From: Methanothermobacter tenebrarum
GTDB lineage: Archaea > Methanobacteriota > Methanobacteria > Methanobacteriales > DSM-23052
Reading direction: 5' to 3'
Length of the DNA: 64,000 nucleotides
NCBI RefSeq assembly: GCF_003264935.1
Contig: NZ_QLOE01000003.1
Coordinates: 124,001 to 188,000, forward strand
The stretch's first letter is position 1. Each line of letters starts with the position of its first letter. Shown piece by piece: positions 46,224 through 53,435 of the stretch. The position numbers were made by a program, and so were the translations under genes. The notes under the pieces were generated by a model. That model did no database searches. It was not told the origin of the DNA and was given only the letters and a program-made list of their open reading frames with translations.

Positions 46224-46814
46224 TTGGATTGGGAAAAAATCGCCAAGAAACTCATATTGGTACTTCCAGCCATGGCTAGCCTGTTATCAGCAGAAGGGTC
46301 CTGTGCTACTTCTTGTCCATATGGGCTTGTGAATGATCCATATCCTGGCCAGTGCCCACGATACACAGACTTAAATGGTGATGGTTTCTGTGACTTTTCA
46401 CAGACATTAGATTCGGTTGCAGCGAATGATAGTGTAGCACAAACAGATAATGTACGAGATGAGAATGTCCATACTATCGAAGATAAGGGCGGTTTTGATC
46501 ACGATTATCATATTATACCATTGAGTTTAATCATCTTTGGGTTATACCTTTTCACTTATTATCTCTTTAAAAAGGGGTATATTAAAAGGTCGAAGCATAG
46601 GAGATTATGGAATTTGCTTTTAACATTTGGTTATGCCGGGACGGGTTTCACAGGTTTCCTATTGATCTTCTTCATAAAATTAGGTATCAAAACGGCTTTA
46701 AACCCAACAGTGACATATTGGCATGCTGAAATGGCGATTCTTATGGTAGTGGCAACATTTTTACATATACACATTTACTGGAAACCCTTCAAGTCAATCT
46801 TCTCAATAAAATAA
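46224..46814 (+). CDS. Membrane protein with Cys-rich, Asp-rich exposed domain; paralogue of upstream gene
   Basis: The first helix (about residues 8-24) could be a signal anchor; it is followed by CATSCPYGLVNDPYPGQC and the calcium-loop-like DLNGDGFCDFS, so at least four cysteines sit in a short exposed segment. From residue 95 on it repeats the membrane plan of the upstream gene (RSKHRRLWNLLLTFGYAGTG, then TYWHAEMAILMVVATFLHIHIYW). Similar Cys/Asp segments accompany redox membrane proteins in other anaerobes, as I recall. The TTG start follows the previous stop directly with GGGGGTG upstream. Electron transfer is inferred, not shown. Confidence 0.72.
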   Translation: MDWEKIAKKLILVLPAMASLLSAEGSCATSCPYGLVNDPYPGQCPRYTDLNGDGFCDFSQTLDSVAANDSVAQTDNVRDENVHTIEDKGGFDHDYHIIPLSLIIFGLYLFTYYLFKKGYIKRSKHRRLWNLLLTFGYAGTGFTGFLLIFFIKLGIKTALNPTVTYWHAEMAILMVVATFLHIHIYWKPFKSIFSIK

Positions 46815-46817
46815 ATG

Positions 46818-47417
46818 TTATATTCTTATAACACGGTGTGGGGTTACTATCATGTTTATTTTCTCGTCATGTGCTTCTACCGGCACTCTTTCAATGATCT
46901 GCGCTTCATCTACTGTAGTTACAATCGGCGTATAATGGGATATTGCACCATGAACTTTAAGTTCTTTTATTTCACGATCACCATAACCCCCACCTTTACC
47001 AAGCCTATTACCATCCATGTCAACGGCCACAGACCCTTCAACTACAATATCTACCTTGGGGAAATCCTTTAGGGGTGATCCGAACTTGTATGCTCCTCTT
47101 ATAGTGGAGGCTAACCTTTCATATCCTCTTGTATTGTCTGATCTTATAAGGAGGTATCCTTTTTTGAGTCGTGGTGTGGGCATTATAAGGTCTTTTCCAT
47201 GAATTAAGGCCAGTTCTCTTACTGGACGTTGAGCAGAATCTGGACTTGAAAATACTATCCTGGACTTTTTCCATTCTCTTGTTCTTGAAAGACGTAGTGC
47301 AGCAGCCCTTGAACCCTTAAAATCGGGTATTCTACCATAATCCCCCCTGGGTCTTTTTGAGATGCCAAGTTTGTGCAAGCGATCCCATATCAACTTTCTA
47401 ATTTTCCTCTTTTTCAT
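46818..47417 (-). CDS. 5-formyltetrahydrofolate cyclo-ligase family protein
   Basis: The protein has the family's nucleotide/folate loop GNRLGKGGGYGDREIKEL near residues 135-152 and the basic N-terminus KIRKLIWDRLHKLG. Bacterial relatives make methenyl-tetrahydrofolate from 5-formyl-tetrahydrofolate; in a methanogen that uses methanopterin the substrate may be a pterin relative or something else. Length (199) is normal. Its start overlaps the RDD-protein stop by four bases (ATGA). Confidence 0.83.
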   Translation of the reverse strand: MKKRKIRKLIWDRLHKLGISKRPRGDYGRIPDFKGSRAAALRLSRTREWKKSRIVFSSPDSAQRPVRELALIHGKDLIMPTPRLKKGYLLIRSDNTRGYERLASTIRGAYKFGSPLKDFPKVDIVVEGSVAVDMDGNRLGKGGGYGDREIKELKVHGAISHYTPIVTTVDEAQIIERVPVEAHDEKINMIVTPHRVIRI

Positions 47418-47806
47418 CTGTCTTCCATTACAACCTTTGTACCAGCTAGCCTATCAAATAATCTTAATTCTCTGTTATATGAGAGTATCAGATCGAATAT
47501 CAGTGGAAGCCAGCAAATCTTGGGAAGATTCCTTATTATAACCTGCTTGTATTCCAACTCTCCCTTTTTCGAGACTACTTTTAACTTCTGGTTTAATTTG
47601 CCAATAGTTCCACCATGATATTCAAAGTAACTGAAATATAAAATCGTTATAATGGCCACTAAGACCAGCCAATAATTGTAAATGAAAAAAGAACCAGTGA
47701 AGACTATTATAGGATAGGATAATAATGTTAGGGCCCAGATTATCAAATTGACCATTAAAAAGTCTATGATAAAGGCGAAAAGCCTCCTTTTTGTGATTTC
47801 TTCCAT
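47414..47806 (-). CDS. RDD family membrane protein
   Basis: The protein begins with the RDD-type first helix (KRRLFAFIIDFLMVNLIIW, with Arg and Asp) and has a second segment GGTIGKLNQKLKVVSKKG before a last helix and the LRLFDRLAGTKVV ending typical of the family. About three helices are predicted. The family is of unknown function, possibly transport. TTG 47815 is an upstream alternative; ATG 47806 is preferred. It lies between hypE and the cyclo-ligase gene. Confidence 0.82.
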   Translation of the reverse strand: MEEITKRRLFAFIIDFLMVNLIIWALTLLSYPIIVFTGSFFIYNYWLVLVAIITILYFSYFEYHGGTIGKLNQKLKVVSKKGELEYKQVIIRNLPKICWLPLIFDLILSYNRELRLFDRLAGTKVVMEDR

Positions 47807-47824
47807 TTTAATCAAGCCCTTTTT

Positions 47825-48835
47825 TTAACATACCCTTGGCACGGGATCTGCTATTGGCGCTTCAATTATCCTTTTACCGCCAAGGGATGTTTCAAGTATT
47901 ACATGCTTCTCTTCTGTGACTTCACCGATTATCTCTGCCTCAGCCCCATATTTTGTTCTTCTTATAACCTTAAGGATGTCATCTGCAAGTTCTGATTCCA
48001 CGCCCATCACTATTTTGCCTTCATTTGCAACCTCATAGGGGTCTATGCCAAGCATCTCAGAGACGGCCCTTACTTCCTCTTTGATTGGTATTTTATCCTC
48101 TTCTATTATCATGCCCACACTAGATTTTTCTGCCAGTTCATTGAGGGCGTTTGCAAGACCTCCGCGGGTGGGGTCCTTCATGGCCTTCACGCCCCCTATC
48201 TCCAAGGCGGCTTCCACTATCTCCCAGATTGGTGCTACATCAGATTTGAGGCTTGTTTCGAAGCCGAATCCTTCCCTGTAGGCCATTAATGCTATCCCAT
48301 GGTCTCCTATGCTCCCTGTTAGGATGATCTTGTCCCCAACCTCGAGTCCGTTATCCCTTATTATCTTGCCCTTCTCTGCTATTCCAATGCCTGTTGTTGT
48401 GATTACCATCTTGTCAAGTTTTCCTTGTTCCATTACCTTGGTGTCACCTGTTATTATTGAAGTTCCGGTTTCCTGGGATATTTGGTCCATGGATTTTATG
48501 ATGCGCTCTAATTCCTCTGAATTGAAGCCTTCACTTATTATCATAGCATTTGCGATGGCGAGGGGTTTCGCGCCCATGACTGATATGTCATTTATTGTAC
48601 CTGAAATTGCGAGTTTCCCAATATCTCCCCCTGGGAAGAACAATGGGTCGATGGTGTGACCATCAGTACTTATAACTATTTCATACCCATCTAGTGGTAT
48701 GCTAGCAGCATCATCCAAGTCATCTAATCCAACACCACCATTAACACTCTTTTTCTGGATGTTGGAGAGGATTATCTCTGATATAAGATTTTGCATCATT
48801 TCTCCGCCTGCACCATGTGACATGCTGATCTTCAT
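47825..48835 (-). CDS. hypE: Hydrogenase maturation protein HypE
   Basis: HypE dehydrates the carbamoyl group on its C-terminal cysteine to make the cyanide ligand of [NiFe] hydrogenases. The required C-terminus PVPRVC is intact. ATP-binding features of the PurM/SelD fold are seen: SHGAGGEMMQNLI, FFPGGDIGKLAISGTINDI and DPTRGGLANALNELA. Length (336) is normal. A minus-strand TATA-like CAATTTTATAC near 48883-48893 precedes it. No other hyp genes lie here. Confidence 0.96.
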   Translation of the reverse strand: MKISMSHGAGGEMMQNLISEIILSNIQKKSVNGGVGLDDLDDAASIPLDGYEIVISTDGHTIDPLFFPGGDIGKLAISGTINDISVMGAKPLAIANAMIISEGFNSEELERIIKSMDQISQETGTSIITGDTKVMEQGKLDKMVITTTGIGIAEKGKIIRDNGLEVGDKIILTGSIGDHGIALMAYREGFGFETSLKSDVAPIWEIVEAALEIGGVKAMKDPTRGGLANALNELAEKSSVGMIIEEDKIPIKEEVRAVSEMLGIDPYEVANEGKIVMGVESELADDILKVIRRTKYGAEAEIIGEVTEEKHVILETSLGGKRIIEAPIADPVPRVC

Positions 48836-48955
48836 AACTTCACCTTTTTATTACCCTATCATTATAGTATTATAGGAGAGTATAAAATTGTTTCCCCGGA
48901 AGGAACATTTCCCAAACTTGGAGTTCATCACCCATAGATCCTCTTTTGAGGGAAT

Positions 48956-48972
48956 CCGAAAAATTTATATAA
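48956..48972 (+). promoter_or_regulatory. BRE/TATA promoter upstream of eS8
   Basis: CCGAAAAA followed by TTTATATAA (TATA core 48964-48972) is a strong archaeal promoter. The expected transcription start is about 48989-48995, leaving a leader of about 105 bases before the eS8 start codon. Confidence 0.6.
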
Positions 48973-48987
48973 TCAAGGGCTAATTAA

Positions 48988-49065
48988 TAGATGATATAAT
49001 TCTTTCTCTGGGGACCCCCAGAGGGGTGATAATTGTATATCATCTAACTTAAATTATATCATCTA
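48988..49065 (+). repeat. Inverted and direct repeats in the eS8 leader, competing hairpins
   Basis: TAGATGATATAATT at 48988-49001 is the exact reverse complement of 49052-49065 (14 bases), and its first 11 bases are also the reverse complement of 49036-49046. The two downstream copies form a direct repeat offset by 19 bases. Between the arms lies a compact hairpin, CTCTGGGG-AC-CCCCAGAG at 49006-49023. As RNA the left arm could pair with either right copy but not both; as DNA the same repeats could be operator sites overlapping the transcription start. Which applies depends on the exact start site. Confidence 0.6.
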
Positions 49066-49098
49066 ATTCTAATATATAGTATTTTGAGGTGATGTTAA

Positions 49099-49482
49099 AT
49101 GGCGATATGGCAAGGTAGATCCAAGAGAAAACCAACTGGTGGAAGGTTGAAAAAGAGCAGAGGCAAAAGAAAATATGAACTTGGAAGAGAAGCCGCGGAG
49201 ACAAGAATCGGTGAAAGGAAGATGAGGATAATAAGGACAATGGGGGGTAACAAGAAGTTTAGACTTGTAACAGACACACACATAAATGTGGTAGACCCTG
49301 ACACCAATAAAGTAGAAGTTGCGGAAATACTAAATGTTGTAGAGAATAGGGCCAACCCTCACTTCGTAAGGAGGAATATCATAACAAAGGGTGCTATTGT
49401 AGAGACAAGCAAAGGCCTTGCCAGGGTAACTTCAAGACCTGGCCAACATGGCATACTCAATGGAATATTAATCAAAAAATAA
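49099..49482 (+). CDS. rps8e: Small-subunit ribosomal protein eS8
   Basis: eS8 is an archaeal/eukaryotic protein of the small ribosomal subunit. The basic N-terminus [20 protein letters not shown] and the C-terminal [17 protein letters not shown] are diagnostic. Length (127) is normal. GAGGTGATG precedes the start. It is followed after 12 bases by the PolB small subunit, an association I recall from Methanothermobacter thermautotrophicus (MTH207/MTH208). Its long, repeat-rich leader suggests regulated expression. Confidence 0.96.
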
Positions 49483-49494
49483 TGGTGTATAAAT

Positions 49495-50157
49495 TTGGTT
49501 GATAACCTGAAAAGGGAGATACTTTCCCAGGTTGAGAAATTTTTAAATTATATCAATAATAGGCTTCCAGAGGGGATGGAACTCGAATATGAGGGATTCT
49601 ACCAGAGGGGCTTTTTCGTAACCAAGAAGAGATATGCCCTAATCGAAGATAATACCATCATCGTCAAGGGCCTTGAACTAGTAAGGAGGGACTGGGCGCC
49701 AATAGCCAAGAAGACACAACAGATGGTACTCCGGGCAATACTAGAGGAAGGATCCCCCAAGAAGGCTAAAGATATTGTAAGGAAGGTTATAAAAGATATT
49801 AAAGAAGGTAACGTGCGAGTCGAGGATCTTATCATCCATACACAGATTACCAAGAACCTTGACGAATACAAGCAAGTGGGCCCCCACATAGTAGCAGCTA
49901 GAAGATCACTCAAAAAGGGTAGACGGGTTGAAAGAGGATCCATAATCCGTTACATTATAGTGAAGGGGAAAGAACCCATTAGTCAAAGGGCGGTCCCAGC
50001 CGAAGATTTCAAGGGGGAGTATGACCCTGATTATTATATAGAGAATCAAGTTCTAGCTGCCGTATCCCGTATAATAACTTCACTTGGATATTCGACAGAG
50101 GATCTTCTCATGTTGGCGAAGGGTGAAAGACAGAGTAGCCTAGACGCATTCCTATAG
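49495..50157 (+). CDS. polB2: DNA polymerase B small (C-terminal) catalytic subunit
   Basis: In Methanothermobacter the family B DNA polymerase is split into two polypeptides, both needed for activity; this 220-residue protein is the C-terminal part. It has the [16 protein letters not shown] segment (KKRY at about 44-47), which in one-piece polymerases follows the catalytic YxDTD motif, then [17 protein letters not shown] and [16 protein letters not shown] of the thumb. No palm motifs A-C are present, so it cannot act alone. It ends in QSSLDAFL, a PCNA-binding (PIP) type motif. The TTG start is preceded by GGTG. Confidence 0.92.
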
Positions 50158-50171
50158 GGGGGGTGGAGTTC

Positions 50172-50852
50172 ATGATAAAAGCCGTGTACTTTGATATTGA
50201 TGATACGCTCTATGACACGTCAAGTTTTGCAATGTTAGCTAGAAAAGCTGCTTTAAGTGTCATGATAGAGGCTGGGCTACCCCTCACACAAGAAGAGGCT
50301 TACCCCCTCCTTAAAGAGATTATAGATGAAAAGGGATCAAATTATGGTAAACATTTTAACGTGCTTACGGAGAGGGTTTTCGGTGAGGAAAACCCCCTAC
50401 TGATAGCTTTGGGCGTGATAACATACCATAATGTTAAGTTCGCCCTTCTGAGACCGTTCCCACAGACCATACCCACCTTGATATACCTCAAAAGTAAAGG
50501 TTATCATCTTGGAGTGATATCTAACGGCCTTACCATAAAACAATGGGAGAAACTGATAAGACTTGGCATACACCATTTCTTTGATGAGGTTGTCACTTCA
50601 GAAGAGGTGGGAGTTGAAAAACCAGATCAGGGAATATTTAGGGAAGCCCTCAATAGGATGGGTTGTAAGCCTGAAAATTCTGTCATGGTTGGGGATAAGT
50701 TTAAGGAGGATATAATCGGCGCAGTGAATGCTGGCATGTCAGCAATACTTGTCAACTCCAAGTTAAAAGATGATGAGAAAGATTATATAAAAAGAGAAAA
50801 ACTCGACATAGAGATAATATCCAACATTGGGGAGCTTAAAAATATCCTATAG
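50172..50852 (+). CDS. HAD-superfamily phosphatase
   Basis: The protein carries the HAD motifs: nucleophile region KAVYFDIDDTLYDTS at the N-terminus, motif II GVISNGLTIKQWEK near 110, and motif III/IV region GVEKPDQGIFREAL and VMVGDKFKEDIIGAVNAG. The helical cap of about 80 residues is of the C1 type seen in the archaeal TIGR02253 group. The substrate is unknown. The GTG at 50163 overlaps a G-rich ribosome site; ATG 50172 is preferred. It sits between polB2 and the AAA+ gene, an arrangement without an obvious meaning. Confidence 0.88.
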   Translation: MIKAVYFDIDDTLYDTSSFAMLARKAALSVMIEAGLPLTQEEAYPLLKEIIDEKGSNYGKHFNVLTERVFGEENPLLIALGVITYHNVKFALLRPFPQTIPTLIYLKSKGYHLGVISNGLTIKQWEKLIRLGIHHFFDEVVTSEEVGVEKPDQGIFREALNRMGCKPENSVMVGDKFKEDIIGAVNAGMSAILVNSKLKDDEKDYIKREKLDIEIISNIGELKNIL

Positions 50853-50865
50853 GTGGTGCCTAAAA

Positions 50866-52617
50866 GTGGATTATTATCATGATGAAAAAATGCAAATACT
50901 CTTCGAGGTTTTAAAACAGCCAAAGAGTCTTGATGAGATAGACTTATCAAGCGAGTTTATAAAAAACCTTATCCTCAAAATCATAGCCACCTATGGGACA
51001 ATAAAAGTTGAAAGGATCCATGAAATCACAGGGTTACATGTGAACATACTCGAAGAATGTATAAGAGAGATGGAAGATGAGGAATTATGTGCTTCCATTG
51101 GTGGGGGCTTCCTATTCCCAACAGTAACATATACTATAAAAAGGGAGGGAAGAAACCTCGCAGAAAAACTCCTTAAAGAAAACCCATACACTGGCATGGC
51201 ACCAGTAACATATGAACTTTATTATAAGATAATGGAAAAACAACTCGAGGGAAGATTCCCCATCAAAATACCTGATGAGATCATTGAGGAAGCATTCAAG
51301 GACATTGTTGGCAGCGAAGAGGCTAAAAAGACCATGATTGAAGCTGCTACAGTTGGAAAAGGCTTTTTTATATATGGTCCTCCTGGGACGGGTAAAACAT
51401 TCATCACAAGTAAAATGTCGGATCTGCTTCCCCCAATTTTAATCCCACGCTATATCGAATTTAATGAACAAGTAATCCAATTATACGACCCAGATTTTCA
51501 CAAACTCTGTGATGAACAACCAGAGGACCCAAGGTGGGTTAAAATATATGCACCATTCGTCTTCACAGGATCTGAACTTACAATTGAAAAAATGGAGACA
51601 AATTTCAACCAAAATAAGGGAGTATATGAGACCTCCCCTATCGTAAAAGCAAATGGTGGCGTCCTACTCCTTGATGATCTTGGAAGACAAAAGGAAGACC
51701 ATAACATGATACTTAACCGTTTAATAATACCCCTAGAAAACAGAAAGGAAATAGTATATGTTAGAGGGGTTCCTGTCACTGTACATTCACATTTTATCCC
51801 TGTATTCTCCACAAACCTTGATATAAGTATAATGGATGAGGCCCATCTTAGAAGGGCGCCCTTACATATATTCCTCCAGGAACCCCCAGTGGATGAGATA
51901 ATTGAAGTATTCAAAAGAAATTTAGATCTTCTAGGTGAAAAATATGATGAAGAGATTTTCGAAAGACTCAGACTAGTTTACACGCCCAAAGAGGATGGTG
52001 GTGAAGGATTAACCCCAACTTTCGCCCATGCCAGGGATCTTGCCCAAATAGCCCAGGCAGTGAGAATAAATCGTGAAATGGAAAAAATAGATGTGGAAAT
52101 ACTAGAAGAAGCCCTAGAAAGGCATGTTCTCATAGACCTTCAAAGGATGGATATTGATATTGCAGAGGCGCAGCAACGCCTACGCACCTTCAGGGTGGAG
52201 ACCCCACAAGTTGAAGAAGCTAAAGAATTATTATTAAGGTATGGGGCGATTGAGATAGGTATTGAAGACGTTTCAATACTCTTAGAACTTAAAAAGACAA
52301 TAAACCCTACCCTATTACTTGAATACCTTAATGAAAACAACATAGATCTTAAGAATGTTGAAATTATAACAGAGAATAATATTAGATTGCAAACTTCACA
52401 AGTTGAAGAAGTTGAGAGACTATTATCAGAGTGTGGATCAGTTGAATTAAGCATTGAAAGCGGTTCAATACTTGTAGATTTTGAAGAGACAGTCACCCCC
52501 ACGCAATTACTTGAATATTTCAATGAAAATAACATAAATGTTAGAGATATTAAGATTATAACAGAAACCAAAAGGGAATTTCGGAAAATTATCCTCAGTA
52601 AAGGGGCGTCTTCATGA
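50866..52617 (+). CDS. AAA+ ATPase with duplicated C-terminal domain
   Basis: From the GTG start (GGTGGTG seven bases upstream) the protein has 583 residues: a helical/winged-helix N-terminal part (about 1-110), an AAA+ core with Walker A FIYGPPGTGKTF (171-178) and Walker B GGVLLLDDLGR (about 264-274), and a sensor/arginine region AHLRRAPLHIF near 330. After the core, two copies of a 64-residue unit follow (about 444-505 and 508-569), each ending YLNENNI-or YFNENNI-type. The family's role is unknown. Its stop overlaps the next gene as ATGA, so it works with that membrane protein. An ATG at 50827 inside the HAD gene is unlikely. Confidence 0.82.
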   Translation: MDYYHDEKMQILFEVLKQPKSLDEIDLSSEFIKNLILKIIATYGTIKVERIHEITGLHVNILEECIREMEDEELCASIGGGFLFPTVTYTIKREGRNLAEKLLKENPYTGMAPVTYELYYKIMEKQLEGRFPIKIPDEIIEEAFKDIVGSEEAKKTMIEAATVGKGFFIYGPPGTGKTFITSKMSDLLPPILIPRYIEFNEQVIQLYDPDFHKLCDEQPEDPRWVKIYAPFVFTGSELTIEKMETNFNQNKGVYETSPIVKANGGVLLLDDLGRQKEDHNMILNRLIIPLENRKEIVYVRGVPVTVHSHFIPVFSTNLDISIMDEAHLRRAPLHIFLQEPPVDEIIEVFKRNLDLLGEKYDEEIFERLRLVYTPKEDGGEGLTPTFAHARDLAQIAQAVRINREMEKIDVEILEEALERHVLIDLQRMDIDIAEAQQRLRTFRVETPQVEEAKELLLRYGAIEIGIEDVSILLELKKTINPTLLLEYLNENNIDLKNVEIITENNIRLQTSQVEEVERLLSECGSVELSIESGSILVDFEETVTPTQLLEYFNENNINVRDIKIITETKREFRKIILSKGASS

Positions 52618-53435
52618 ATATCCAGGGGATAATTCTACCAGCCTTAGTTTCCTTCTCTGTGTCAGTTATTTTCTGGCTTTTAGTAATGATAATTCCGAGC
52701 TTTTTTCCAAGGGAAATGGCTAGGATACTATCATATTTTAAGAGGGAGCCAGAGAATCCGTTTGAAATAGCGAATATCTTATCCCATTTGGGGGATGATG
52801 GTTGGCGGAAGTTTTTTGCCATGGAACTTTTAAAAGGAAGATTCCATGAAAAGTTAAAAGAGCTTGAATCGAGAAAGTGTGAAGAGTGGGCGAGGGAAGT
52901 TGAATCCCAAAAGGAACTTTTAGAGAAGAGAAAACTTACAGACGATGAAATACTCCACATAGAAGCGGGTAAAGAACTGAAAAGAAGGTATGGTAACCTA
53001 TTAAGGTCTGTGGAGGCTGATAAGTCGAAATTCCAACTTAGTAAGTATGAGGAGGAGTTTATAGGGATACGGGACGAGAAAAAGGGTCAGATCAGCAAGT
53101 TAAGGGATAAATATGATGATTTCACCTTCTGGGCCTTGAAAAATAGGAACTTGTTAAAATATATCAAGGAGAGGATCTTCTCTAATAAGGAATTCCAACT
53201 TTCGAAGATTAAGAATTCATCAAAGGAATGGGCTCTCATACACTTATGGGGATTAAAAGCGCCTGAAAGATATCAAACTAGTAAATTGTATGAGAATCTC
53301 CTACTTTATATGGCGATTGTAGGGGATAAAAGGGCCATCATGGAATTGGCAATATCTCTTAGTTCACACGAAAAGTCATTAGATTTCCTCGATAATATCA
53401 TGAAAAAGGTTGAAAATTGGTTAGCTAGATCCTAA
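52614..53435 (+). CDS. Membrane-anchored coiled-coil protein coupled to the AAA+ ATPase
   Basis: One N-terminal membrane helix (about residues 5-28, VSFSVSVIFWLLVMIIP) is followed by a charged, helical soluble region of about 240 residues with likely coiled coils around 75-165. The C-terminal 60 residues (YENLLLYMAIVGDKRAIMELAISL) look like helical repeats. I do not recognise the family. The ATG overlaps the AAA+ stop, so equal synthesis is likely; a model is an anchor or substrate adaptor for the ATPase. It converges on the DtxR-like gene with a 15-base overlap. Confidence 0.65.
   Translation: MNIQGIILPALVSFSVSVIFWLLVMIIPSFFPREMARILSYFKREPENPFEIANILSHLGDDGWRKFFAMELLKGRFHEKLKELESRKCEEWAREVESQKELLEKRKLTDDEILHIEAGKELKRRYGNLLRSVEADKSKFQLSKYEEEFIGIRDEKKGQISKLRDKYDDFTFWALKNRNLLKYIKERIFSNKEFQLSKIKNSSKEWALIHLWGLKAPERYQTSKLYENLLLYMAIVGDKRAIMELAISLSSHEKSLDFLDNIMKKVENWLARS

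What the first reader, a model, noticed from the sequence alone, without database searches (positions are those of the whole stretch)
49099..50157. Family B DNA polymerase split into two genes; the small catalytic subunit lies behind eS8
The 220-residue protein starts at the thumb-adjacent KKRY segment and has no palm motifs, so the break falls just after the catalytic YxDTD region of a normal PolB. It ends in QSSLDAFL, a candidate PCNA-binding motif. A split PolB with both parts needed is established for Methanothermobacter thermautotrophicus; seen here, it is a strong lineage marker, and the coupling to a ribosomal protein gene may tie replication to translation.
Basis: partly seen in the sequence, partly recalled or inferred. 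Interest (0 to 1): 0.7.

Follow-up and report, generated by a model that had tools for sequence, protein, structure and literature searches.

The report
Split archaeal DNA polymerase B gene
This archaeon makes its family B DNA polymerase from two separate genes, a trait already known for its whole group of methanogens; the gene order shows that the small half still sits beside an old polymerase neighbour, a HAD hydrolase gene, and that the ribosomal gene in front of it is a lineage-specific neighbour.

Summary
Window 49495-50157 encodes 220 residues equal to the C-terminal third of an archaeal PolB (PF00136 positions 244-452). The other part is on another contig of the same genome: 578 residues carrying exonuclease, motifs A, B and C, ending YADTDGFYATYQKK. 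No full-length PolB exists there. So PolB is a two-chain enzyme, as in Methanothermobacter.

This is already published as a trait of Methanobacteriales (Kelman 1999; Makarova 2014). In the phylum search 150 of 152 genomes have PolB matches, and no listed match spans both halves; other archaeal phyla have intact PolB.

What I add: (1) a QxxLDxF(F/L/I) PCNA-binding tail is present in 55 of 55 small subunits. (2) The break lies 10-17 residues (one outlier, 32) after the pol-c intein site, in the loop after motif C, which argues against a simple frozen intein split. (3) The conserved neighbour is the downstream TIGR02253 HAD gene, on the same strand in 44 of 55 loci. It also directly follows intact polB in Hydrothermarchaeota and Micrarchaeota, so the small gene kept polB's old 3' context. 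(4) eS8 is directly upstream in 27 of 55 and was never found directly upstream of intact polB.

A replication-translation link through eS8 is therefore not supported.

The parts
49495..50157 (+). small subunit of split family B DNA polymerase (polB2-type): palm helix after motif C, KKRY segment, thumb, PIP tail; 220 aa, TTG start
   Evidence: PF00136 pos 244-452, E 1.4e-27; PDB PolB alignments E 3.6e-59; AlphaFold model matches PolB structures, best E 1.1e-19
49624..49635 (+). KKRY motif of the small subunit (residues 44-47)
   Evidence: translation; invariant in 19 aligned homologues
50131..50154 (+). [12 protein letters not shown]-binding (PIP) motif at the C-terminus
   Evidence: 55 of 55 small subunits end in a Q-x-x-L-x-x-F-[FLI] motif; low-confidence tail in the model (residues 211-220); aligned place of QVGLSAWL in KOD
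49099..49482 (+). ribosomal protein eS8 gene, directly upstream
   Evidence: TIGR00307 E 7.5e-54; PF01201 E 7.2e-43
50172..50852 (+). HAD hydrolase of family TIGR02253, starting 14 nt after the polB2 stop; conserved 3' neighbour of polB
   Evidence: TIGR02253 237 bits, cut-off 169.75; only above-cut-off copy in the genome; follows polB2 in 44 of 55 relatives and intact polB in other phyla

Best explanation
The locus encodes the C-terminal chain of a two-chain family B (PolB3-type) DNA polymerase, an ortholog of the split PolB of Methanothermobacter. The large chain, encoded elsewhere, carries the N-terminal domain, the 3'-5' exonuclease, motifs A and B and both catalytic aspartates of YADTD. 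The small chain supplies the rest of the palm, the KKRY segment and the thumb that grips duplex DNA, plus a C-terminal PIP motif that tethers the holoenzyme to PCNA. The chains would associate at the break loop between the motif C hairpin and the following palm helix, recreating the fold of one-chain PolB; neither alone should polymerise. The fission happened once in the ancestor of this class. The 3' half kept polB's old downstream neighbour, a TIGR02253 HAD gene, and in this class came to lie behind eS8, whose transcription it probably shares. Shown here: the sequence anatomy, absence of a full-length copy, distribution, synteny and motif conservation. Inferred: single origin, chain association, PCNA binding and co-transcription.
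For: Two half-genes tile PF00136 without overlap (13-230/232 and 243/244-452) and there is no other PolB. They tile PDB PolBs at residues 2-548 and about 559-767. Catalytic motifs DFRSLYPSI, KRLANTMYG and YADTDG are intact in the large chain. In the phylum 150 of 152 genomes have matches and all listed matches are half-genes, including the deepest family f4. Outgroup phyla are intact. The break falls in a 6-residue loop between strand 578-581 and helix 588-600 of an intact homologue model, and the small chain's model begins with that helix. PIP tail in 55 of 55. HAD follows polB2 in 44 of 55 and abuts intact polB in L142, L148, L150, L194, L197 and L210.
Against: No complex was modelled and no binding or activity was measured here. 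The requirement for both chains is known for M. thermautotrophicus (Kelman 1999, cited in PMC4104785 and PMC7776575; details from my own knowledge), not for this species. Which half moved cannot be settled: genes upstream of intact polB in Hydrothermarchaeota matched neither locus here.
Confidence: 0.95

Rival explanations
1. The split arose by failed or erratic intein excision or trans-splicing (Makarova 2014), so the break marks a former intein site.
For: Published proposal (PMC4104785; PMC4390880). A pol-c intein sits close by in an intact relative: G269 reads YAD-[SVSGDTE...LVHN]-TDGFYAI. Nanoarchaeum equitans has a split intein in PolB (PMC4104785).
Against: In all 31 large chains examined the chain runs on past the pol-c site as TDGFY and ends 10-17 residues (one 32) beyond it; both catalytic aspartates stay in the large chain. 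No intein remnant is seen at the large C-terminus or in the short, variable small N-terminus. The break lies in a surface loop, the place expected for a tolerated fission by a stop and a new start.
Confidence: 0.2
2. The eS8-polB2 pair is a selected replication-translation coupling, with eS8 control setting PolB level.
For: Genes are 12 nt apart and co-directional; eS8 is directly upstream in all sampled loci of genera g1, g2, g8 and family f4, so the arrangement is probably ancestral in the class. Berthon 2008 reports other replication-translation gene clusters in archaea (PMC2643942).
Against: The pair is absent in 28 of 55 loci, including all 11 of g4 and the sampled g6 and g7. The large subunit is not in this operon. 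eS8 is not next to intact polB. The Berthon main text has no match to 'S8e'.
Confidence: 0.1
3. The small gene is a decaying remnant of a PolB that is being lost (PolD does replication).
For: PolB is dispensable in some euryarchaea such as Methanococcus maripaludis and Thermococcus (PMC3984812).
Against: The frame is open in essentially all relatives, with 73% mean column identity over 19 diverse homologues and invariant KKRY, GLE.VRRDW and PIP residues; large-chain catalytic motifs intact.
Confidence: 0.02

Closest known systems
Split PolB of Methanothermobacter thermautotrophicus (Kelman, Pietrokovski and Hurwitz 1999), extended to Methanobacteriales by Makarova 2014 (PMC4104785)
   Same: Two unlinked genes; large chain with exonuclease and catalytic motifs ends after motif C; small chain of about 220 aa with thumb.
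   Different: Nothing essential. In the relatives of genus g2, eS8-polB2-HAD order is the same but the HAD frame lies 128-213 nt downstream of the polB2 frame rather than abutting it.
One-chain PolB of Thermococcales (KOD, Pfu, Tgo)
   Same: Same fold and motifs along both chains, PIP tail at the same place.
   Different: Single polypeptide, often with inteins.
Split PolB of Nanoarchaeum equitans
   Same: PolB from two genes (PMC4104785).
   Different: There a split intein may rejoin the parts by trans-splicing; here there is no intein remnant and the break is past the pol-c site.

Membership tests
Split PolB of Methanobacteriales | PolB encoded by two separate genes and no full-length copy | tested here: met
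   Two PF00136 matches only, on different contigs
Split PolB of Methanobacteriales | Large chain holds exonuclease and motifs A, B, C and ends shortly after motif C | tested here: met
Split PolB of Methanobacteriales | Orthologous small chain in relatives | tested here: met
   58 of 60 relatives match at 55-95% identity, 25 of 25 further handles
Split PolB of Methanobacteriales | Both chains needed for polymerase activity | not testable with these tools
   Biochemistry known only for M. thermautotrophicus (Kelman 1999)
PCNA-binding (PIP) protein | Q-x-x-[LIM]-x-x-aromatic tail, conserved and exposed | tested here: met
   55 of 55 conserved; tail of low model confidence
PCNA-binding (PIP) protein | Physical binding to PCNA | not testable with these tools
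   A PCNA gene is present; no complex prediction offered
Split-intein PolB (Nanoarchaeum type) | Intein fragments at the break | tested here: not met
   Large chain ends 11 residues after the pol-c site with no intein N-part; small chain starts at the palm helix

The most novel reading that the evidence does not exclude
polB and a TIGR02253 HAD phosphatase form an old archaeal gene pair, often with overlapping stop and start. The class-wide fission left the 3' half with this partner. The break arose in a surface loop rather than at an intein site, against the published intein explanation, and the HAD enzyme may serve PolB, for example by cleaning non-canonical nucleotides.
Probability: 0.45. 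Interest if true: 0.45.

Novelty: already known. Interest (0 to 1): 0.3.

Why it matters
The split is a clean marker of one methanogen class and a natural case of a polymerase working in two pieces. The added results bear on how it arose: the break does not coincide with the known intein site, and the small gene keeps a HAD neighbour shared with intact polB genes of distant archaea. That polB-HAD pair is a candidate functional link that can be tested. A 2014 survey stated that PolB3 genes form no conserved neighbourhoods in most archaea (PMC4104785).

Tried and rejected
Searching for shared upstream neighbours between intact polB loci and the two halves, to decide which half moved, gave none. 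An Rfam search of 46500-52700 gave only a chance hit. Papers naming MTH208/MTH1208 or TIGR02253 with DNA polymerase were not found. The intact-PolB model (7 sequences) has modest confidence (mean pLDDT 71.8) and is used only for the strand-loop-helix around the break.

Full report
What is in the window. The span 49099-50157 holds two co-directional genes. 49099-49482 is ribosomal protein eS8 (TIGR00307, 7.5e-54). 12 nt later a TTG start at 49495, preceded by GGTG, opens a 220-residue frame ending at 50157. It matches the C-terminal part of Pfam DNA_pol_B (positions 244-452 of 453, 1.4e-27) and aligns with the solved archaeal PolBs of Pyrococcus and Thermococcus at up to 3.6e-59. An AlphaFold model made from 19 homologues (mean pLDDT 78.4) matches those structures in Foldseek (best E 1.1e-19); the global superposition is loose (TM about 0.66-0.70, rmsd 6-7), as expected for a piece without its partner.

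The missing part. The same genome (99.94% complete) has exactly one other PF00136 match, on another contig: a 578-residue protein at G000:C2 110650-112386 on the minus strand. It has the exonuclease domain (PF03104) and PF00136 positions 13-230, aligns with PDB PolBs from residue 2 to 548/549, carries DFRSLYPSI, KRLANTMYG and YADTDG, and stops at YADTDGFYATYQKK. The two halves tile one PolB without overlap. Corrections: the small chain begins 43 residues before KKRY, with the palm helix after motif C, and it holds none of the catalytic aspartates.

How general it is. Among relatives 58 of 60 have the small gene and 25 of 25 further genomes do. In the phylum search 150 of 152 genomes have PF00136 matches; the two without are 64-74% complete. 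None of the matches printed spans both halves (the match list was cut, so this covers the printed rows), and the most distant family in the class (f4) is split too. In other archaeal phyla PolB is one chain. The split is therefore fixed in this class and probably arose once.

Literature. The split enzyme of M. thermautotrophicus is Kelman et al. 1999 (cited in PMC3984812, PMC7776575, PMC4104785). Makarova et al. 2014 (PMC4104785) state that Methanobacteriales have split PolB3 genes and propose erratic intein excision; PMC4390880 repeats this. The central finding is thus already known.

Where the break lies. The pol-c intein site can be read in relative G269: YAD-[SVSGDTE...FANGILVHN]-TDGFYAI. 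In 31 large chains the protein continues through TDGFY and ends 10-17 residues past that site, 11 being commonest, with one at 32. In a model of an intact homologue the break falls in the loop between the motif C strand (578-581) and the next helix (588-600). A frozen trans-splicing intein at pol-c would have placed TDG on the small chain. This disfavours the simple form of the intein proposal; an inexact intein loss followed by extension cannot be excluded.

PCNA motif. All 55 small chains examined end in a PIP-like Q-x-x-L-x-x-F-(F/L/I) sequence, at the place of QVGLSAWL in the Thermococcus enzyme, in a tail of low model confidence. One PCNA gene is present in the genome. Binding itself was not tested.

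Neighbours. In 55 loci from 20 genera, eS8 is directly upstream on the same strand in 27, and a HAD hydrolase directly downstream on the same strand in 44; 22 have both. All sampled members of genera g1, g2 and g8 and of family f4 have both, so eS8-polB2-HAD is probably the ancestral order, with eS8 lost from this place in g4, g6 and g7, and HAD lost in g5. The HAD belongs to TIGR02253 (237 bits, cut-off 169.75) and is the only above-cut-off member in the genome.

HAD beside intact polB. Among 80 loci of intact PolB from other archaea, a profile of the class's HAD genes gave eight hits at 150-322 bits, then a gap down to 63. All eight are downstream of polB on the same strand: six abut or overlap the polB frame (L142; L148; L150, Candidatus Hydrothermarchaeum profundi; L194, L197 and L210, Micrarchaeota) and two lie about 0.9 kb away (L186, Candidatus Naiadarchaeum; L213). 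Seven of the eight exceed the TIGR02253 cut-off. Thus the 3' half here kept an old polB neighbour, whereas eS8 was not found directly upstream of intact polB within the flanks available. Most intact loci lack the HAD neighbour, so the pairing is patchy; it could be ancestral and often lost, or spread by transfer. Whether the 5' half left or the 3' half moved with HAD is undecided.

Mechanism. Most likely the two chains assemble through the break loop into an ordinary PolB: the large chain proofreads and catalyses, the small chain provides the thumb and the PCNA tether. eS8, polB2 and HAD are probably one transcript. The eS8 contact is best read as promoter sharing rather than a functional coupling of replication and translation, since half the sampled loci lack it and the large subunit is elsewhere.

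Noticed in passing
window 48988-49098: The eS8 leader folds into a strong hairpin (z -3.67). A second copy of ATATCATCT can pair with the eS8 Shine-Dalgarno GAGGTGAT, which looks like a two-state leader. Clearly shared only with the closest relative (L005), weak in L006, absent in L007; not in Rfam.
   Followed up: partly
window 50172-50852; L142, L148, L150, L194, L197, L210: TIGR02253 HAD hydrolase gene abuts polB (intact or its 3' half) in several archaeal phyla, often with overlapping stop and start codons; no published link found.
   Followed up: yes
G149 (L044, L227, L231): One relative has two different large-subunit-like PolB genes (624 and 590 aa frames) and one small gene; a MAG, so contamination or a mobile-element copy is possible.
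   Followed up: no
G054:C134:13027-13587: An extra 1075-residue frame with a partial PF00136 match (61-237), perhaps a mobile-element polymerase.
   Followed up: no
L111-L114, L117 (genus g5): These genomes keep eS8 in front of the small polB gene but have lost the HAD gene behind it.
   Followed up: no
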